From Adineta ricciae (taxonomy: Eukaryota; Rotifera; Eurotatoria; Adinetida; Adinetidae): 64,000 nt of DNA. Below the pieces are notes generated by a model. The model saw only the letters and a program-made list of their open reading frames with translations, ran no database searches and had not been told where the DNA came from. A program made the position numbers and the translations under genes. This document shows, one piece after another, positions 16,351-39,005 of the stretch (within the stretch, counting starts at the first letter, position 1; the number at the start of each line of letters is the position of its first letter). The stretch is taken from contig CAJNOJ010000156.1 of assembly GCA_905250025.1 (NCBI GenBank), positions 1 to 64,000 on the forward strand, given 5' to 3'.

Positions 16351-17646
16351 ATGCACGTACATCGGTCGATGACGAATACAGATACTAATAAATTCTATTT
16401 CGATCGTAAGAACTACTTCGTACGATTCATTCCACATGGCAATGAAACGGCACAGACACCCAGCAGTCAAATCAATAAAAATATCAGCCATGCATTAGAA
16501 TACTTTGTTGCGGATCTGAGACGTGATCGAAATAAAACAATAGAACGATTTCTCAGCGAAGAAACTCTCGACAACATTTTTAGCTCAATAGCACAACTAT
16601 TATTGAATGAAGATAATCGGTAAGAATATATCACGCTCACCTTACGAATACGCATTTCTCTTTTCTAGAATTTGTGGCAACAGCGCTTATATAATTGGTA
16701 GTGCAGTCGAATTTGAATCCGGATTAAAACGCTTCCTAACTATATTTTCACAAGATCGTACAGAAAATACGGTGGATATCATCCAAACACTAAGCAATTT
16801 ATTATCACATTCGGATTCGGAATGTGCAATGAACGCAGCGGGTATACTTGGTACTATAGTATGTAGGTTTCTCATTTAAAATTTGTAACAGTTTACAAAA
16901 AAAAAACAATCATAAAACTCACACCACCAGAAATTTTCTTTCTGAATGACAAGAAAAGCAAATAAGAAAAGGAAAAGAACGCAACACGTTGCCTCGATGA
17001 GTCGATTCTAAAACTGTTACAAGATTTCTTTGTAAGACTTCTCATATTCAATTACATTGTATTTTCTTTCAAAGTGCGGCTCAAAAGAAGGACGGAATCT
17101 AATCTTAAATCATGCCTGTATATCACAAATGATCACCAATACATCGTCACTATTATCTTCTGAAAACTCATGGATTGCTAGTAACGCTGCATTAGTCTTG
17201 GCTAGGTAGATATGCATGACATTTATAGTAACTGAGTGATGCTGTACCATTCTAGACTCACTGTTGAAGAACTTGGCTCTCAAGCAATATTAACGCATCC
17301 AAAACATCGACAGATTTTGAATGAGATGCTAGCTGCACTCGACGTGAGTTATCCGGGACGAGCAACCAATGCTGCGTTTGCAATAGGACGTTTGATCGAA
17401 GGAGATGAGGGAAAGAAAATCTTTGTAGCTGCTTGTGGACAATACAAAATTGTAAATGAAAAGTTTTCTTGAAAATATTATTGTTAACCGATTGCTTTAG
17501 TTTGACGCGCTGTTATTGATGATGGAAGTGAATGAAGAAAAAGGTGTAAATAAGAACGCTTGTTATGCCTTAAGTTGTATATGTACAACGCCATTTGGTT
17601 TTCAATTGTGTCTTCAATATAGCGATACTTTCCATCGGATTCTGCT
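16351..17646 (+). CDS. armadillo-repeat protein, 3' end lost at an N
   Basis: Exons 16351-16619, 16669-16858, 16978-17031, 17075-17205, 17256-17451 and 17501-17646 are in phase. Repeating helical units typical of ARM repeats are visible: CAMNAAGILGTI, NSWIASNAALVLARL, RATNAAFAIGRLI, KNACYALSCICTTPFG. The short 54-nt exon at 16978 supplies a further helix (CLDESILKLLQDFF). The frame can be extended upstream to 16192, but that part reads like an intron, so I start at 16351. The product stops at the ambiguous base at 17647. ARM proteins of this kind are scaffolds; no specific orthologue was recognised. It may be the N-terminal part of the same gene as the FN3 fragment downstream. Confidence 0.6.
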
Positions 17647-17647
17647 N
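17647..17647. other. single ambiguous base N
   Basis: One N inside coding sequence. Upstream are ARM repeats; immediately downstream, in a different frame, is the second half of an FN3 domain whose first strands are missing. This is best read as a collapsed assembly gap. Confidence 0.9.
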
Positions 17648-18602
17648 GTCTCACTCGCTACGAATTATTTTGTAATCGACGATGTATATATTCCGGTACA
17701 GCTCAAGAACATCGTGCAACAATGCTCAAATCAGATACAGAATATACTATGGAAGTAGCGGCCGTCACTAATGAAGGTCGATTTCGCAGCAAACCAGCAA
17801 AAATTCGAACTTTGAAAGATGAATGTAAGTGTTTGACGAAGATTTCCTGTCTTTCACAGAACAGTGTTGATTCATTGGTTAACTAATCTTTAGTTAATAA
17901 TGCACATCGATATTCACTTTATGAACCACTATCTCAAAGTCCGCCCCGAGTGAAACGTACTGAAACAGTCAGTTCTTTGTATTCCTCAGCGACGAATCTT
18001 AGTTCATCAAGAGCGTCAATGTCTTCTGTTGGACGACGTTTATTTCGAGAAGGTAAAGATTGTTCATTTCTAATCATTTTAAAGCTAGCCTTCGCGTACA
18101 TTTAGGAACACATGCAAGTCGAAATGTCGATATGAGTACTACCGTTCCCATCCAACTCGCAGTAAATTGCCAATTTTCATGCCGCCATACAGGCATACAT
18201 ATCAACTTCTTTCATTTTCTTTAGTCAGGCAATCTTAGCAACAGTCGCACCTTACCAGCATTAACACGAAGTCTTCAACCTCGTGCGCCCGAATCTATTA
18301 GAAGACGTGATGTGCAACGGTATCGAACTGAGCCCATTTCGATAAATCAACTTCAACCTCAAACGAAGTTCATATCCGCTTCTATGATTGAACCTATTCT
18401 TGAAATCGACCATAAACCTCAAGTGAGATGGGCATCGCCAGTTCGACAATCCATCCCACAAACAACAGCTTTTCGACTTTCAGCAACGGACAAATCAACA
18501 TTGAGTATGCGCGATGCACAACGTGCAGACCGATCTGTATCAGTTTCATTGCCAGATTTGCCATCGAATGTACCACGAACTCAATCAGTCAGTCACACAT
18601 AA
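17648..18602 (+). CDS. FN3-domain protein, 5' end missing
   Basis: Exons 17648-17824 (partial), 17894-18052, 18106-18161 and 18225-18602 are in phase, with frame starting at CTC in LTRYELFC. The first exon encodes the C-terminal strands of a fibronectin type III domain: the conserved LKSDTEYTMEVAAVTNEGRF motif followed by SKPAKIRTL. The remaining 200 residues are disordered, rich in Ser, Arg and Pro (SLYSSATNLSSSRASMSSVG). The first half of the FN3 fold is absent, so sequence must be missing at 17647. Whether it continues the armadillo protein or is a separate gene cannot be decided here. Confidence 0.6.
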
Positions 18603-24433: not shown

Positions 24434-25486
24434 TTAAACAGCAGAACGAATTTCCGATTGAATCAGATTTTCTCGCATTAGATCGATTAATTTCACACGA
24501 CATTTCTTCCATCTACGTTCCTGTACGTCATTTGCATGGGCAAGATGTAGAGTGACTGCTTTTAATTTAGATAACGATTTGATAAAGACAGACCATGTGT
24601 GATAATCCAAACAAGATGTATCTGGAAAGGAGCTGATAATGGTTAGTTTGAAGTCCGTTAGATTCGGAGCGAAGCCCGACAAAAACTCTGTTAGTTGCGC
24701 GAACGGCATTGTAAATTCACAGATATACAAAGTTAAATTCGAGATTTCAGTTCGATAACTAGAGATATTTTGCTCGTCAACTGCAGAATCCAAAGACAAC
24801 TGTTTGGCAGTGATATTCAACGAGTGTAGATTTGGTAGGTGTGAAAGAATGTTTCCCAATCGTCTAACAAAACAAATATTCTTCTTGCCGAGTAATCTTA
24901 GCGATTGAATAGGACTTCGTAGTTCATTACTCAATTGGCAGGAATGTGTAGCGATACTCAATTGCATAGAACACATCTGCAGATGGGGTAAAGTCAGAAC
25001 CAGTTGAAGTAAAACCGAGGTCATCTTGTAGTTAATCGACATTTTAGTACTAATATTCAAATAACGAAGATGAGTCAAACTATTTCGAATAATATTTAAA
25101 AGTTCCTTGTTAACATCCAAACGATGAAGAATCAATGTATCAATTTGTGGGAAATCGAATAAGCCTGCATAATACTCTAAATCAATCTATAATATACATG
25201 CATCATAGCCGCAAGTAACATGGATCATAGTGCTTACTTTATTCGTATTTTCTAATCGTAAACCGGTAACATATTGTCGGTGTGTCAGCTTCGGTAAAAC
25301 ATGTCGAAGTAAATAGTATGCTTCATCGTCATGGTTTTTCAAGCTTATCTTTGTTTGAGAAGCAAGCAGAATGTCATCGAGTCTTTTATTCAAATTCGAA
25401 AAAGTTTTAAAACGATCGAATGTTTTCAAATAGGCAAATGTTTGAAACCAAATTTCCACCGGTAGATGTTCGATGGTCGTCGACAT
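24434..25486 (-). CDS. F-box and leucine-rich repeat protein, 333 aa
   Basis: Two exons, 25486-25238 and 25186-24434, with a 51-nt intron. The F-box occupies residues 1-40 (IEHLPVEIWFQTFAYLKTFD, then FSNLNKRLDDIL). The remainder is a string of divergent leucine-rich repeats (LRYLNIST, LPHLQMCSMQLS, LPNLHSLNITAKQL, LSKLKAVTLHLA). It should be a substrate receptor of an SCF ubiquitin ligase: the F-box binds Skp1 and the repeats choose the target, which is unknown. Similar F-box/LRR genes are abundant in rotifers, and another sits at 40808. Confidence 0.8.
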
Positions 25487-25595
25487 GATGAAAGTAATTG
25501 CACGAAATGTGATGCATATATTTATTTTTATTCATGGACATGCAAAAAAGGCTCGTTCTTACGAAATTACATTGAAATATTTCATAAGATATGAG

Positions 25596-27662
25596 TTAAA
25601 AGTAAGTCACATGCAATTCAGAATTCAATAATGACGAAACACGTTGAATATTTTGGTCAAGATCAATTATATATGAATTTGTTGATGGCTGGTTCTCACG
25701 AAGAATACGCATTGCCTTTTCAAAGTAGGTCAGAGCTTGTTGATACAAAGATTTTTGTTCATAAACAATCCCGATATTGTGCAATGTTGATACTAAAGAT
25801 AAATGATGAGAAGGAAGACATTTGATTTTGATATCCAAAGATAAATAATAATTTTCTAATGCGAGGTCATATTCTATCAAACAAAGATAGATATTTCCGA
25901 TGTTATTGTACGATGCGGCAAGATCAAAATGATCTTTTGGAAGAGATTTTTGTCGAATAGCTAACGCTTTCTGGTGAAATTCTAATGCTTTGGAATAATT
26001 CTTTTCATTTTCATAAATACAACCCATATTATTCAAAACATCGGCTATCTGATAATAATGCTCACCCAATAGCTTTCTCCAGATATCCCATGCTTTCGTG
26101 TAGAACTCAAGAGCATTTCGGAAATCTCCTTGTTTTTGATAGATACAACCAATGCAATTATAACTCGTCGCTAAACAAGGATCATCGAATTTCAAAATCT
26201 CCAGCGATTTCTTATGATAATTCAAGCTCTTTTCGTAATCATCTTTTAGTAGAGCTAGTACACCAAGTGCGTGGTAAGATTTCGAAAGAATTTGTTTGTC
26301 GTTGGGTAGTTCATGGATTAAACGAGAAAAATATCCCTCTGCTAAATCGTATTCACCCATTTTATGGAGCAGAGTTCCGAAAGTGACGAGGCTTGTTTCT
26401 TCGTTGATGTCAGTGTGTTCATCTTTGATATGATCGTAGAGTCGTTGTAGATTTTCGTTATGATCGTTGGAAAATACCATTTGTATGATCCAATAATCAT
26501 TCTTATCTTGTTTGATGTTCATTACACGAAAAACTGAGCCTAACATGAATAGAATTTCTTGTTCAGTAGAGTACGAACTTAATGAAGCGATATTGGCGAA
26601 TGGTTTCGAATGGTTTTCATTGGGATCAGCGTCGATTTCGAAGAGAATCTTCTGTACACAATCGGAAGATGATTCATCTTTTAAGAATCTCAGTGCTTTT
26701 TGTCGATTGAGACTTGTTGAAAAGAAAGAATTGATTGAGAGATATTCACCGAGTGAATTTGTTAACTGATCGAGTTCTTCTTGAGACAAGAGTTGTCCTC
26801 GATAGACACGAATCGACGTGGTACATTGGTTGGCTTTTAATTGTTGACTTACATCGCGAAGAAAGAACCGAAACAGAAATAATAAATGGAAATTTTTCGT
26901 GCGTAATGCTTTATTTAGTAAACGATAGAGAAAGGTTTCGCGTGTATACCACCATATCGCACGATTTGATGAATAAGTTTCTTGGAATTCTTTGAGAAGA
27001 GTCAATTCATTCGGACTATCTGCATAAATTTGATTACAAACTTCAATTAATTCGTTCTTATCCGATGAAGTTGGTGTCATTCGAATGAGACAGTCGACCA
27101 ATAACTGAGAATAGAGAAAATCATTGTTCAACGTATTAGTAGATCTATCCGTGCCACCACTCAGATTCGACAAGGCTAATGCAACTGGCTCATCGACACC
27201 GCTTTCGCGGAGTTTAGTTCGATCTAATTGGATTTGTTGGAATAGACCTTCGAATTTGATAAAAACTCCTTTGATCTATGCAGTCACAAAAAAAACATTT
27301 CATTTATCAGCATTCGAATGTAAAGTTACTTTAGGAAACATTTTTGTCCATTCTTCATTTCTTTTCTTGTTCATACAATATACATAGATGATAGCGATTT
27401 GTCGAATATGGTGAATTTTTGGTACGATTACTTGACCTAATTGACCACTGACAACCAGAAAGATTCGATCATCTCTAGATGCTTCTTGCAGATATTGTTC
27501 ACAGTCCTGAACATTGTCAAACACTTTCAAATAGATCATTATCATACGAAGTAATCGTTGCGCATTGACGTTATCATTACTAGCATTCACTGATGAGTCC
27601 AACCAGACAAGACAAATTGATTCAAGATTGTTCTTCTCCTGTGTTAGAGTATGTGTCGCCAT
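25596..27662 (-). CDS. mono-ADP-ribosyltransferase with C-terminal TPRs, catalytic motifs intact, 670 aa
   Basis: Two exons, 27662-27330 and 27275-25596. Exon 1 encodes a separate alpha/beta domain (about 1-120; LVWLDSS, FLVVSGQLGQ, IIYVYCMNKKRNEEW). The arginine-ADP-ribosyltransferase domain (about 165-375) shows the R-S-E signature: Arg in RVYRG near 270, FFSTS near 296-299, and the E-x-E motif as TEQEILFM near 349-351. The C-terminal 250 residues are about six kinesin-light-chain-like TPRs (LATSYNCIGCIYQKQGDF, IADVLNNMGCIYENEKNY). It should transfer ADP-ribose from NAD+ to arginine of proteins bound by the TPRs. No signal peptide, so cytosolic. It is the nearest paralogue of the gene at 28079. 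Confidence 0.88.
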
Positions 27663-28078: not shown

Positions 28079-30161
28079 TTATCGTAACAAATCGTTCACA
28101 CGTTGAATATCTTTACGAATTTGGACGAGATGACCGTCTGTCGGTGGTAATACAGTTTGAAAGCTCCATCCGGCTCTTTGATAATGCAACTGTGCCTGTT
28201 CGTACTGTCCTTTAATCTCATATGTATCTGCAATACTTCTCAATATCATTCCCATGGCAAATCGTGAAGAAGTTACCGTTTTCGTATAGATCTCAAGTGA
28301 CATGTGATAGTAATCCAAGGCTTGATCAATATTGTTGAGAGCTTTATGAACTGTAGCAAGATTTTTGTACGACTCAGCCAATTGAGGATCCATTGGGGGG
28401 ACATGTTTCTGATAGATTGCATGCGCTGTTTCATACGCGTTCAAAGCTTCAGGGAAATTCTCTCCCTTTCGATGCACATTTCCGATCTGATTGAAGCATG
28501 CAGCAATCTTTGGATGTTCTTCACCAAAATTCTTTTGAAAAATGTCTATCGATTTCTTAATGAAATCGAAGGCTCGCTTTGGGTCATTTTTCTCTCGATA
28601 ATTTTCCGCCAGACTGAGGTAACTATCAGCGATGTCTGGGTGATCTGTTCCAAGGAGCTCCACTTGAATCGCTAGGGCTCTATTGAACCATTGAAGACTA
28701 GAATCATAATCACCTTTGTCTTTACATAAAGTTCCAAGTGCATTGTAAAAGAGAACAGTATCTTGATGATCATCAGGTAGACCTTTCAACATATGGAGGT
28801 AATATCTCTCTGCGTCCGCAAATCTTCTTGATTGACAGCAAAAGTGTCCAAAAGTAGTTAGTGGATGTGGATTATCTCCTTGATTGAACATTCTACGTAA
28901 TTGTTGATTACTTTCAGAACAGAGGACTAGTCGAATATTCCAGTTTTGTTCCTCATCGATTTGGATACTGATGTAACGAAAAATTGTACCGGGCATGAAA
29001 AGAGTTCGCTCCTCATTAGGTAAATAACTTTGAGTAGCTAGGTTACTGAATGGTTTGATATTTTCTAAATGAGGATCAGCTTCGATTTCGAATAGTACTC
29101 GTTGAAACTCCTCCGAATAGTCTAGTTGAGATAGATATGACTGAACTTGTTGCTTTGAACTTGCCCAAAGAAATGAACTTGTCGAAATGAAACCTCCAAT
29201 AGTTCTTTTTAAAATTTCTAATTTTTTTACCGAAATCAATTGACCGGAAAAGACGCGAATGGGTGCTGAGCATTTTGTTTTCATTAATTGTCGTTCGATG
29301 TCATGAAAATAAAATCGAAAGAGTAATAACAACTCCAGATTTTGATCTCGCAACGCTTTGTTCAATAGACGATAGAGAAACGATTGCCTTGTGTACCACC
29401 ATATTGCGCGTGAGGGTCTATAGTTTTCATTGAATTCTTCCAGAATTTTTAGTTCCTCTTCATTTCCTGCATAATACCGTTGACATAGGGAGAGCAGATC
29501 GGTTTTATCAGTCATAGCAGAATTTGTTTGGCGAAGGCAATCGATCAACAAATGAGAATAAATGAAGCCACTATAGAGATCAGCTAATGACTGTTCTCGA
29601 TCAAGAACAAGTGCCGGTATGGTAATGATTTTTAATGATTCAATTAATCTATTCTGTTGCCGTGTTAACTGTTCTTCATGAATGATATTTCCAAGCTCAA
29701 CCAAGCTGACAACAAGTCGTCTTATCTACAAACAATGCTAAGGATAGTTTAATTCAACAACGAAGAAAAGCTAAAATTCCTTCTATGCTAATAGACGCGC
29801 TCTAATTTCTCACCTTAGGATATTTCGAAGCCCAGCTTTCGTTCTTTTTCTTGTCCATACAATAAACATAAATAGATGAAATTTGTTGAACATTATGAAC
29901 TTGTGGAACAATTTCTTGGCCTAATCGTCCACTGACAATCAGAATGATTTGGTCTTGTTTCGGTACAGATGAAAGGTATTCCAAACATTCATTGGTGTGT
30001 TTGAAAACTCGCAGATAATTGATGTCCGCTCGAAGTTGTCGTTGGATTTGTGGAAATTCTGGAGCGTACGCGATCGTCGGATCAAGCCAAAGAATAGCAT
30101 TTGTTTCTAGATTTGGTTGGTGCTCTTGTTCTTCGTCTTGTGTTGCCAGTGCAGTAGCCAT
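28079..30161 (-). CDS. ADP-ribosyltransferase-like TPR protein with degenerate catalytic motifs, 664 aa
   Basis: Two exons, 30161-29814 and 29725-28079, with the same intron position and phase as the paralogue at 25596. Exon 1 encodes the same alpha/beta domain (ILWLDPT, ILIVSGRLGQ, SIYVYCMDKKKNESW). The ART domain keeps its fold landmarks (SRAIWWYTRQSFLYRLLNKA, FISTSSF) but two of three catalytic motifs are altered. RVYRG has become RVFSG (Arg to Ser, near 276), and the E-x-E site reads PNEERTLFM, with Arg where the catalytic Glu should be (near 356). TPRs are intact (AESYKNLATVHKALNNI). The frame is open and uninterrupted, so it looks like a maintained pseudoenzyme rather than a dead gene. 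Confidence 0.85.
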
Positions 30162-30908: not shown

Positions 30909-33439
30909 ATGGGTGCACAGTATTCTTCCGTATCGGATCTTAAATCCAATGAATATCTTTCTCGTTTTGCCAGCGAAGAATCCATAACACCGACAGATCC
31001 ATTTTGGAATCAGTTTCTGTCATTTCGTCTCCAATCTCCATTTGCAGCGTAAGTAACTGACTATCGTCCGGTTGTTTCTCCACTGAATTTCCCTTGGTCT
31101 TTCAGTTCACAATCGAAACTATTGGATGAACTATGTGCCACATATCTTCAACAACTCGAATCAAACAATCCTCGAGCAAATAACTATGGAGCATTAATCG
31201 AAGTATTCGTTCGTTTAGCAACCACATTACGAGACGAATGCGAAGAGTATGTTTTTCGTAAAAATGGAAGAAATCAATGAGATCATCACTATTTTTCAGT
31301 AATAGTCTCGTTTGGCAAACCTACAGCGCTTTGTTTGTCCTTCGTTCTATCACAAAATATTTCATTGAAATCGATTCCGAACCGAATCTTTCTCTGTATT
31401 TTGCTCCACAAGAAAATCTCCTTGAACGGACATCATTGATGGGTGTGTTTATTGATACTTTATTCCGAACGACGATCATCCTTCCAGTGACATCCTATTC
31501 ATATGCTTTACATTTGGAAGTGTTGAACACATTACTATCACTCTTAGCGATTCAAATGTGCGCCAAAGAAGCTGCATTTATCAGTGCTATTTACACGATT
31601 TTTATGCATAGACTAGAGTAAGTGAAGGTGAACTTCAGTGATTTCAAAGATAGATTGCCTTTTAGTCCGCTATTAATATCAGAATTCACGCGAACGTTAT
31701 TAGAACATTTTATGAAACAAACGGAATGTCCGGCGTTTTTAGCAGTCGACTCAGCTACAAGATCAACTACAGATAGCGGAAGTTTGTACAAAATTGGTCA
31801 AAGTGTTGCAAGTAGGTGACGAATTCATCGATTTCGTGTTTACGATTGTTACATCCGTATTAGGTAGTTTTTGGTCGGTCATGACACTTGGAATGAGCTC
31901 ATCAACAACAAATGTAGCCGAAGAAGTAGCACCATCCATTGAATCGGCCAATATTCTTCGTAATCGACATCTATCAAACCAAAGTATTCATCTACTTTTA
32001 ATTCTGAGCAATCATTTTACAAGTGATGCTCATCGAAATCCTTATCGACTAGCTTTATTACATTTTACGGATACGCAAGGTAAACGAATTCTATGCAAAA
32101 GCTGTTTCGAATGTTCAACTCTGTAGATACACCGACAAATCTACCCGATTCCGAACCATTACCATGGTTTTCAGTTGATTATCGATGTTTATATGATGTT
32201 CTTTGCCAAACAGTGCATACTGAACAGAGTACATTATTATTATACATGTTACTTCATCGTAATCAACATTTTCGAGCTTATGTCATATCACGATCAAATA
32301 TCGATCAAATAGTAAGATTTTATTATTTGAAAAAACACGAAAGAATTCATTTCTCAAAAAACAGGTTTTACCAATTCTTCGAGTGATTTACACGACTACA
32401 GATGGCAATTCCCATCACATTTACATGTCATTAATTATTCTATTGATTCTTTCTGAAGATGATTATTTCAATAGAGCAATCCATGATATAAAATTGAAGA
32501 AAGTCGCCTGGTAAACTTGTCTTATATGTACACTAAACATTGATGAGAGTGTTTGCAGGTATACTGAACGTTCTATCAATGAAATAAGCCTTGGTGGTCT
32601 GTTAATTGCCATTGTTCTTCGCACAATTCAATATAACATGGCGCGCATGCGAGACAAATACCTTCATACGAACTGTCTAGCTGCTCTTGCAAATATGTCA
32701 TCCCAATTTCAGAATTTGCACACATACGTCACTCAACGGATAATCTCTTTGTTCAATTTACTGGCTCGTAAACATTCCAAAATCTTAGAACTTATTCAAC
32801 AACAATCCAAACAAGAACATACTGCATCAGCGATGGCTTTAACTGATCATCCTCAAACATTAGCATCGAATGACGACATTCTCAATGACTACATACAAGA
32901 TTTAAGCATCATCGAAGATGTTATGAGAATGGTCTTAGAAATCATCAATTCATGTTTAATACATACACTACGTTTGAATAGTAACTTGATCTACGCATTA
33001 CTTTATAATCGAGATATATTTGATAACTATCGGACACATCCCAATTTCCAAGATATTTTACAAAACATTGATACAGTTATTGTCTACTTTGCGGAAAAAG
33101 TCGATCAATCAGCACAACGATCAGCTGAATATGTTAAAGAGATTATTGAATCGAATGCAAAACAGTTTCCACTGGATCGATTGAAAGTACTGTCGGATCT
33201 TCGCGTTTGAAAATATGCCTTTGAATTTTCTTTAGAAATTTCCTGATTTAAAATTTAAATACGTTGAGGAAGAACAACCGGAAGATTTCTTTGTCCCTTA
33301 TGTTTGGACATTAGGTACGAGACATAATGGATTCTTCTTTGATGGATTTATTTGATTTGTTTTAGTTTACAAATCATGTAAGCTTCATTGGTCAACGGAA
33401 TCGGTTTTTATTTTCAAGCAACCATCAAATAATTCCTAA
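30909..33439 (+). CDS. DYM: dymeclin, 694 aa
   Basis: Ten exons (30909-31048, 31106-31246, 31300-31617, 31654-31811, 31864-32079, 32127-32311, 32365-32510, 32559-33186, 33236-33314, 33366-33439), all in phase. It aligns along its whole length with animal dymeclin: N-terminal [17 protein letters not shown] with a possible N-myristoylation Gly2, [63 protein letters not shown] and the C-terminal [18 protein letters not shown]. Dymeclin is a peripheral Golgi protein required for Golgi organisation and trafficking. Length matches the family. First of a tight same-strand run with the Mff-like gene 145 bp downstream. Confidence 0.95.
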
Positions 33440-37409: not shown

Positions 37410-37828
37410 TTTCGTAAATCATTCGTCCTTTTTTTTTCCTTTTTTCTGTGTTTGTATAGCACGTCCATTCTGAGCAATTGTGTATATAAATAAACGATCA
37501 TCGATCGAAATCTAATTCGAATCAATGAATCAACTAATGTCTTCTTGTCTGTTTCTTTAACCTCATTTCAACTGTCAAGCTTGTGATAAGATATCCCAAA
37601 AAGGAAATGTAGATGCTAGTCGGATGCCAGTTACATTAGCTTTTATTGACATGACCGAATTTTTTTCTATGGATGATTCATATGACGAAAGCAAATGCCA
37701 GTTCTTTTCGTACTTCATTGAAAGTAGTATTGCGCAATACGAGAGAAACTTGTCAAATTCGTCGTTTTATCATAGCTGGCTTTTAACTTTGTGCTTGCAC
37801 GATAGTGATTCTTTGTTTTCTCTTTCAG

Positions 37829-39005
37829 ATGGCATCAGCATTGTTCGATGTTGTCATACTTTGGTCACCCACAGAATCTGATACCGAATATTCTGAGTTG
37901 CAAAACCTATTCAAAACGGAATTTCCAACTCAATTTCGACTTCATCTATTCACGAAGACACGAGATGCAGTCAAACATACCGAATCAAAAACACCATTAC
38001 CAGCAATTGTCATTACGAAACTAGGCATGACTGAGGAGTCTTCAGGTCAACCTCTGATTGAAGCTATTCGCCGGCAAGACAAGAGTACCTTTATCATTCT
38101 TCATTCACATAAAGTTTGTGCCGATCCAAACCTTCGGTAAATTCATTCGGACGTTTTTAACGTTTTGTTTGACTTTCGTTTTTCTTTCAGTTGGTATTTT
38201 GCTGAACTTGGTGTAAATATGATAACTGAATTTACTATGCAAGTTCAGCATGTTTTAACTCAACTACTGCCTTTGGCTCAACCAAGTCCAAAGCCTTCTT
38301 ACTCGTGTCCGTTTTGCAAATGGTCGTCCTTATCGTTTTCTCAACTTTATACTCATGTTCCTCTCTATCATACTAATGAAACGGAATTGTCTGTTAAATG
38401 TGATATATGTCAGCGAGCCACGCGCAGCTATGCGGTACATCTGCACGAGGAACATAATGACGAAACCGAACGAATGCCGTCGGCGATGCCTTTGTATGCA
38501 TTTGCATTGGTGGTATGTCAACGTAAAAGCGATAATCGTTTCCTTGTTGTTCAAGAATCCGGATCGATGGGTTTTTGGCTACCGGGTGGACGAGTTGAAG
38601 TCGGAGAACAGTTGGATAAAGCTGCAGAGCGTGAAACATTAGAAGAAGCCGGTGTGCGAATTAAGATCACCGGCGTCTTGAAAATCGAATTCTCACCACG
38701 AGCAAATATAAATCGTCTTCGCGTGATCTTTTTCGCTGAACCTGCCGATGAACAAAACTGTGATCCCAAAACTATACCGGATTACGAAAGGTCAGTTGAC
38801 TGAGATCGAAAAGACACTTTTCTTTCACCGATGATAGTCTTACTTTTCATGTAGTTATGGTGCCATGTGGTTGACATATGAGCAGACCGTACAATGTAGT
38901 ACCCAAAATCAATTACGCGGTAGTGAACCATTGAAATGGTTTAAATATATTACTGATAATGGCACTGTACATTCGTTAAGTATTCTTGCGAAAAGCGAAC
39001 TTTAA
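37829..39005 (+). CDS. Nudix hydrolase with N-terminal receiver-like domain and C2H2-type zinc finger, 352 aa
   Basis: Exons 37829-38136, 38191-38790 and 38855-39005, in phase. Residues 1-130 look like a CheY/receiver-type alpha/beta fold (FDVVILWSP, PAIVITKLG, TFIILHS) without the phospho-acceptor Asp. Residues 140-195 hold Cys/His pairs of zinc-finger type (SCPFCKW then H-H; KCDICQR then HLHEEH). The Nudix domain follows with a complete box near 236-258: GGRVEVGEQLDKAAERETLE then EAGV, matching G-x5-E-x7-REUxEExGU. It should hydrolyse a nucleoside diphosphate linked to some group X; substrate unknown. The ATG directly abuts an acceptor (tctttcag), pointing to a spliced leader or another 5' exon. 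Confidence 0.85.

What the first reader, a model, noticed from the sequence alone, without database searches (positions are those of the whole stretch)
28079..30161. ADP-ribosyltransferase paralogue kept intact but stripped of two catalytic motifs
The two tandem genes share architecture, intron position and phase, yet the 28079 copy has RVFSG for RVYRG and PNEERTLFM for the TEQEILFM of its neighbour. The NAD-binding Arg and the catalytic Glu of the E-x-E motif are both changed, while FISTS and the TPRs remain. The frame has no stops. This suggests a selected pseudoenzyme, perhaps a decoy or regulator of its active neighbour.
Basis: partly seen in the sequence, partly recalled or inferred. Interest (0 to 1): 0.72.

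Follow-up and report, generated by a model that had tools for sequence, protein, structure and literature searches.

The report
Selected dead ADP-ribosyltransferase in rotifer
A gene in what looks like a bdelloid rotifer genome encodes a relative of an enzyme that has lost all three parts of its catalytic centre, yet natural selection still preserves the rest of it on both chromosome copies, so it probably works by binding rather than by chemistry.

Summary
Gene B (minus strand, 30161-28079, one phase-0 intron) is an intact ART-TPR gene beside a sister, A, with a complete R-S-E signature. B has lost three catalytic elements, not two: Arg to Ser, the Ser of S-T-S to Trp, the catalytic Glu to Arg. 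The "FISTS" said to remain lies just upstream of the true STS. The second haplotype (contig C28, 93.4% identical, colinear) carries the same dead gene, with Phe at the Arg site, so it is no sequencing error. dN/dS of B is 0.33-0.46 by method (A 0.22-0.37), below 1; B keeps 0 of 4 conserved columns in the catalytic motifs but 21 of 23 other conserved ART columns. Of 93 family loci compared, 12 deviate at R, S or E and only three lack all three: B, its allele, and the ART-TPR gene at the homoeologous locus (C16), which trees place, weakly, nearer A. Loss therefore probably happened twice at this locus. B is most likely a selected pseudoenzyme under somewhat relaxed constraint. "Regulator of its active neighbour" is not supported: no second ART lies beside the C16 gene. 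Pseudo-ARTs are a known kind (human ART3). No structure could be predicted.

The parts
29814..30161 (-). Gene B exon 1: N-terminal ~116-aa domain, no Pfam or NCBIfam family found, 151 matches listed in this genome (a lower bound)
29726..29813 (-). Gene B intron, 88 nt, GT-AG, phase 0, same place as in A and in the C16 gene
28079..29725 (-). Gene B exon 2: degenerate ART domain followed by TPRs, 548 aa plus stop
29246..29248 (-). Place of the NAD-binding Arg (YRG): Ser in the window (TCC), Phe on the other haplotype (TTC)
29177..29191 (-). FISTS segment; aligns with YLSIN of A and is not the catalytic STS
29165..29167 (-). Place of the catalytic Ser of S-T-S: Trp (TGG) on both haplotypes
29006..29008 (-). 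Place of the catalytic Glu of E-x-E: Arg (CGA) on both haplotypes
25596..27662 (-). Gene A, tandem paralogue with intact R (26801-26799), S (26720-26718) and E (26558-26556); exons 27662-27330 and 27275-25596
30909..33400 (+). Dymeclin gene next to B (ends approximate, by eye; two exons confirmed by Pfam), synteny anchor for the C28 allele and the C16 homoeologue
24434..25531 (-). F-box/LRR-like gene beyond A (by eye; Pfam gives only weak LRR matches, E 0.05, and no F-box match here); its C16 counterpart has a weak F-box-like match below the cut-off

Best explanation
Gene B encodes a catalytically dead ART-TPR protein (pseudo-ART) kept by purifying selection, somewhat weaker than on its intact sister A. 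Shown by sequence: all three R-S-E positions are replaced, frame and splice sites are intact on both haplotypes, and protein change is slower than silent change. Inferred: with Arg gone, Trp in place of the Ser of S-T-S and Arg in place of the catalytic Glu, the protein cannot hold or use NAD in the usual way. Inferred, about 0.35 on its own: the kept ART domain and N-terminal domain act as a binding module, a non-catalytic competitor or scaffold that takes the partner or substrate an active ART-TPR paralogue would take, with the TPRs tuning partner choice. The confidence given is for 'selected pseudoenzyme', not for the binding role.
For: R, S and E all lost in B and in its allele. B keeps 0 of 4 motif columns and 21 of 23 other columns conserved in 38 R-S-E-intact paralogues. 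dN/dS of spliced B 0.332 (NG86), 0.358 (LWL85), 0.457 (YN00), 0.453 (ML); A 0.222, 0.327, 0.351, 0.371; NG86 bootstrap CI B 0.234-0.473, A 0.148-0.333. In the ART core (exon-2 codons 55-270) the ratio is 0.216-0.369 in B and 0.253-0.371 in A. 0 indels in 1,998 aligned exon nt of B against 9 in 1,150 nt of the two spacers beside it; P(no stop) under neutral simulation 0.0016, P(as few amino-acid changes) 0.0036. Pfam ART: A 32.9 bits, B 12.3, cut-off 22.3. A profile of 20 family ART domains without B aligns YRG, STS and EVLF with the solved ART 4xzj.
Against: No expression, protein or activity data; no structure (18 attempts, none accepted). B changes faster than A: dN about 1.5-2 times that of A in every part measured; over exon-2 codons 1-285 the ratio is 0.276-0.493 in B against 0.160-0.252 in A, so the match with A in the ART core depends on the boundaries and on a low dS of A there. 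B's NG86 value exceeds 8 of 10 other close family pairs. The neutral test is clear for codons 1-285 (P = 0.0078) but not for the TPR part alone (P = 0.20). The C28 allele tends to be faster (34 against 19 polarised changes, 13 unresolved, p = 0.053). Apparent pseudoenzymes sometimes use migrated residues or another chemistry (passages of PMC7955679).
Confidence: 0.75

Rival explanations
1. B is a gene in slow decay (relaxed constraint), not yet disabled, and its lost motifs are the first sign of death.
For: dN/dS is higher than in A by all four methods (NG86 CIs overlap); the Arg site differs between haplotypes; the C28 allele tends to be faster; the TPR part alone does not reject neutrality in the simulation (P = 0.20).
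Against: NG86 CI stays below 0.5; no indel or stop on either haplotype; 21 of 23 non-motif conserved columns kept; a long B branch (about 1.1 changes per column) without disruption.
Confidence: 0.15
2. B still acts on a nucleotide or another ligand by unorthodox chemistry or binding, with residues other than R-S-E.
For: The ART core remains constrained; the literature warns of apparent pseudoenzymes that are active (PMC7955679, passages).
Against: All three elements are replaced by non-conservative residues; the Arg site differs between alleles.
Confidence: 0.08
3. B specifically regulates or shields its active neighbour A.
For: Tandem position and shared architecture on both haplotypes.
Against: On C16 a triple-dead copy has no second ART-TPR gene in the 8 kb read; nearby copies on one contig are common in this family (C402, C605, C123, C525), so adjacency says little.
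Confidence: 0.15
4. The dead state of B and of the C16 gene is one shared ancestral loss older than the genome duplication, not two.
For: They are the only two lineages among the 93 loci lacking all three residues, sit at homoeologous places and share Ser to Trp. AU tests do not reject B+C16 (p = 0.256, 0.185, 0.201). Rare residues in the ART part do not choose (6 with A, 6 with B).
Against: C16 groups with A in the whole-exon tree (57/90) and the TPR tree (93/89), and with L015 (97/77) and then A (92/58) in the ART tree without motif columns. Residues shared only by A and C16 against only by B and C16: 56 against 16 in the TPR part, 37 against 32 in the ART part; rare ones in the TPR part 9 against 3.
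Confidence: 0.25

Closest known systems
Human ART3 (PF01129 pseudo-ART; K-L-V at the R-S-E positions in the table of PMC7955679, passages)
   Same: R-S-E clade ART family member with all three active-site residues replaced and the gene kept.
   Different: ART3 is listed there at the cell membrane or outside the cell; that it has no TPRs is recalled. B carries an N-terminal domain and TPRs and lies in a large rotifer family.
ART4 / Dombrock (inactive in mammals, active in chicken; PMC2576468, abstract and passages)
   Same: Loss of R-S-EXE residues in one lineage while a relative stays active; gene kept.
   Different: ART4 keeps part of the motif (G-S-E in the table of PMC7955679); B has none of the three; that ART4 has no TPRs is recalled.
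ART-TPR family in the same genome (93 loci compared)
   Same: N-domain, intron, ART, TPR; apart from its allele (88%), the best paralogue matches B at 41%, most of the 30 best at 34-41%.
   Different: 81 of the 93 loci have R, S and E intact; B has none of them.
LRRC9 ART-like domain (PMC7955679, abstract and passages)
   Same: Proposed pseudo-ART tied to a repeat domain.
   Different: LRR instead of TPR, very remote from known ARTs; B still aligns with intact sisters over the whole domain.

Membership tests
Active R-S-E clade ART (PF01129 type) | Pfam ART score over the curated cut-off (22.3 bits) | tested here: not met
   B 12.3 bits, A 32.9 bits
Active R-S-E clade ART (PF01129 type) | Arg of YRG, Ser of S-T-S, Glu of E-x-E | tested here: not met
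   B S-W-R, allele F-W-R; A R-S-E
Active R-S-E clade ART (PF01129 type) | NAD-dependent activity | not testable with these tools
   needs an assay
ART fold | Fold of the ART domain | tested here: inconclusive
   21 of 23 non-motif conserved columns kept, 43% identity to A over the domain; 18 structure requests never accepted (first, last)
Rotifer ART-TPR family | N-domain + phase-0 intron + ART + TPR | tested here: met
Pseudo-ART (pseudoenzyme) | Catalytic motifs absent | tested here: met
Pseudo-ART (pseudoenzyme) | Gene kept by purifying selection | tested here: met
   dN/dS 0.332-0.457 by method, NG86 CI 0.234-0.473; no indel or stop
Pseudo-ART (pseudoenzyme) | No activity, non-catalytic function | not testable with these tools
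   inferred only
Pseudogene | Frame disruption or dN/dS near 1 | tested here: not met

The most novel reading that the evidence does not exclude
One locus of a degenerate tetraploid has turned ART-TPR genes into selected pseudoenzymes twice, independently, once in a tandem copy (B) and once in the homoeologue (C16), with the same Ser to Trp change perhaps filling the nicotinamide pocket, while one copy (A) stays active. Pseudo-ARTs would then be a recurrently selected product of this expanded family, for example non-catalytic baits or competitors in an ADP-ribosylation-based stress or defence response.
Probability: 0.2. Interest if true: 0.72.

Novelty: new member of a known kind. Interest (0 to 1): 0.5.

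Why it matters
The genome carries a large ART-TPR family. Passages read in two Adineta vaga papers report ADP-ribosylation terms enriched among genes that respond to stress: over-expressed after desiccation or radiation (PMC10809525), under-expressed in spaceflight and discussed there with PARPs and DNA repair (PMC12220480). If part of this family is catalytically dead yet selected, the reading of such terms changes; that those papers' genes belong to this family is my inference, not tested. The A/B pair and the C16 homoeologue also give a natural comparison of live and dead copies of one enzyme under measurable selection, including what may be a parallel loss.

Tried and rejected
Rejected: sequencing or assembly error (both haplotypes show the loss); pseudogene; another Arg/Glu pair taking over in the alignments; that FISTS is the catalytic STS. 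Weakened on re-check: my first reading that the dead ART part is as constrained as A's live one. It holds for codons 55-270 by four methods (0.216-0.369 against 0.253-0.371) but not for codons 1-285 (0.276-0.493 against 0.160-0.252), and dN of B is higher in both. The smaller spread of the ART part than of the TPR part between haplotypes (17 of 216 against 37 of 263 residues, p = 0.041) rests on boundaries chosen afterwards and leaves out codons 1-54 (10 of 54 changed); over codons 1-285 YN00 shows no difference from the TPR part (0.493 and 0.492).

Led nowhere: structure prediction (18 attempts, all 'busy'). Trees could not settle whether C16 is the partner of A or of B; the A+B+C16 test did not finish and was not repeated; A+B as one clade was not rejected (p = 0.276). 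One search read the wrong strand and was discarded (done again). Paper searches: 'bdelloid' with 'ADP-ribosyltransferase' 0 papers; 'bdelloid' with 'ADP-ribosyl' 15, of which I looked at passages of 2; 'rotifer' with 'ADP-ribosyltransferase' and 'TPR' 1, about toxins. So I found no account of this family in that library; other sources were not searched. YopM in the PDB search of exon 1 was taken as a chance match. No dN/dS could be had for the C16 gene: the Dymeclin search found only three places. Codon models per branch were not run.

Counts: the census of 93 loci is all of L009-L038, L049-L097 and L110-L123; allelic and tandem copies count separately, L009/L010 are B and its allele, L025/L026 A and its allele. 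The profile used to align them included B. The 38 R-S-E-intact paralogues are those among L009-L067 only (38 of the 68 intact of 79) and include A and its allele, so A's own score (4 of 4, 23 of 23) is partly circular. Nineteen loci found by Pfam ART alone (L001-L008, L098-L108) were looked at only and are not in the count; most of the 150 Pfam ART matches were not fetched. Genome search lists are capped, so family size is a lower bound. Re-fetched stretches (L039-L048, L109) were left out of the count. In some searches exon 1 was taken one codon (B) or three codons (A) into the intron; one search used the spliced ends and gave the same NG86 values to within 0.001.

Full report
What is there. 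The window is G000:C156 of a 130-Mb assembly in 1033 contigs. Its G+C is 36.7%, and the second haplotype differs at a level (dS of exon 2 0.146-0.166) that matches the published homologue divergence of Adineta ricciae (Ks 0.135-0.14, G+C 35.6%; passages of PMC5916493; the assembly there is larger, 174.5 Mb). The species name is therefore an inference; no tool named it. Two genes lie in tandem on the minus strand: B (30161-28079) and A (27662-25596). Each has a short first exon coding for an unnamed ~115-aa domain, a phase-0 GT-AG intron, and a long second exon with an ART domain and TPRs.

The active site. A has the full signature: YRG, SFFSTS and EQE. B has FSG, SFLWAS and EER. A profile of 20 family ART domains (without B) finds the solved arginine ART 4xzj (E = 4.1e-5), whose YRG, STS and EVLF lie on the family's columns, so the positions are assigned correctly. 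Pfam's ART model scores A at 32.9 bits and B at 12.3 (cut-off 22.3). That A is active is predicted from these motifs, not shown.

Not an error, not a wreck. A 24.5-kb block of the window aligns with contig C28 at 93.4% identity. It carries both genes. The C28 copy of B has the same Trp and Arg, with Phe at the Arg site (TTC against TCC). Between the two copies there is no indel in 1,998 aligned exon bases of B, while the two spacers beside it have 8 in 737 and 1 in 413; a neutral simulation with the observed number of substitutions gives no stop in only 0.16% of runs. dN/dS of spliced B is 0.332, 0.358, 0.457 and 0.453 by NG86, LWL85, YN00 and ML; of A 0.222, 0.327, 0.351 and 0.371. The NG86 bootstrap CI is 0.234-0.473 for B and 0.148-0.333 for A. 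In the ART core (exon-2 codons 55-270) B has 0.216-0.369 and A 0.253-0.371; over codons 1-285 B has 0.276-0.493 and A (1-287) 0.160-0.252. So the dead domain is under purifying selection, comparable with A's in its core, weaker over the whole first half of the exon, and B changes faster than A overall. Ten other close pairs of the family range from 0 to 0.50 by NG86; 8 of the 10 are below B.

Where B lost residues. Of 27 ART columns conserved in at least 90% of 38 R-S-E-intact paralogues, B lost all 4 that lie in the motifs and 2 of 23 others (hypergeometric P = 8.5e-4). The C16 gene lost 3 of 4 and 3 of 23; other members with partial losses, such as L021 (2 of 4, 7 of 23) and L061 (1 of 4, 9 of 23), have worn more evenly. 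In B the loss is aimed at the catalytic centre.

The family. Among 93 loci compared (79 in the first round, 14 added), R is intact in 88, S in 84 and E in 86; 12 loci deviate at one or more. Three lack all three: B, its allele and one more. Some single changes, such as Ser to Thr, may be tolerated, so 12 is not a count of dead enzymes.

The homoeologue. The Dymeclin gene next to B (Pfam PF09742) is found at three places: window, C28 (97%) and C16 (81%). Beside it on C16, in the mirror place, is a single ART-TPR gene followed by a gene with a weak F-box-like match (below Pfam's cut-off), the same order as in the window with one ART-TPR gene fewer (the window's F-box-like gene is so called by eye). 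The C16 gene has YHG, TFLWTT and EEQ: Arg, Ser and Glu are all lost, with the same Trp. It is the third triple-dead locus. It looks like the partner of A rather than of B: its best matches are C92 (L015, 38%) and A with its allele (39%), against 31% for B; the TPR tree puts it with A (93/89), the ART tree without motif columns with L015 and then A (97/77, 92/58). But no AU test rejects B with C16 (p 0.185-0.256), both branches are long, and the ART part does not choose (37 against 32 shared residues; rare ones 6 and 6). I therefore hold two independent losses as more likely, not shown.

How it probably works. Shown: catalytic residues gone, gene kept. Inferred from knowledge of R-S-E enzymes (recalled): Arg holds NAD, the Ser of STS supports the nicotinamide side, the second Glu is catalytic; their replacement by Ser/Phe, Trp and Arg should abolish NAD use and may fill the pocket. 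Between haplotypes the ART core varies less than the TPR part (17 of 216 against 37 of 263 residues, p = 0.041; A shows the same trend, 11 against 21), with boundaries chosen afterwards; over codons 1-285 YN00 shows no such difference. The simplest role is binding: a non-catalytic competitor, scaffold or bait built on the ART surface, N-domain and TPRs. That role is a guess at about 0.35.

What is known. Pseudo-ARTs exist: human ART3 (K-L-V) and ART4 (G-S-E) in the table of PMC7955679 (passages), and ART4 is predicted inactive in mammals but active in chicken (PMC2576468, abstract and passages). B is a new member of that kind in a setting I did not find described. Its interest lies in measured selection on a dead domain and in the possible repeat of the loss at the homoeologous locus.

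Noticed in passing
29814-30161 and 27330-27662: The N-terminal ~115-aa domain has no Pfam or NCBIfam family yet 151 matches are listed in this genome (a lower bound), many inside far longer open frames (up to 2121 aa): an unnamed, widely used rotifer domain.
   Followed up: partly
L109:2487-4505 (C16:262786-264804): Single ART-TPR gene at the homoeologous locus with H, W and Q in place of R, S and E.
   Followed up: yes
L051 and L052 (C92 and C15): An apparent allele pair of ART-TPR genes with Val at the catalytic Glu, NG86 dN/dS 0.167 over 192 codons: another candidate pseudo-ART under constraint.
   Followed up: partly
L015 (C92) and L118 (C247): Two family members share R, Thr, Gln at the three positions (EDQ for E-x-E).
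   Followed up: no
17426-17768 against C28:594200-595816: C28 has about 1.6 kb more than the window here, with a second copy of 221 nt (100%) at its left and of 132 nt (97.7%) near its right end.
   Followed up: no
37787-38140: Open frame with a weak match to the receiver domain (PF00072, E = 0.031, below cut-off).
   Followed up: no
Gene B, C28 against window: The C28 allele of B carries more polarised amino-acid changes than the window allele (34 against 19, 13 unresolved, p = 0.053); A shows none of this (16 against 13).
   Followed up: partly
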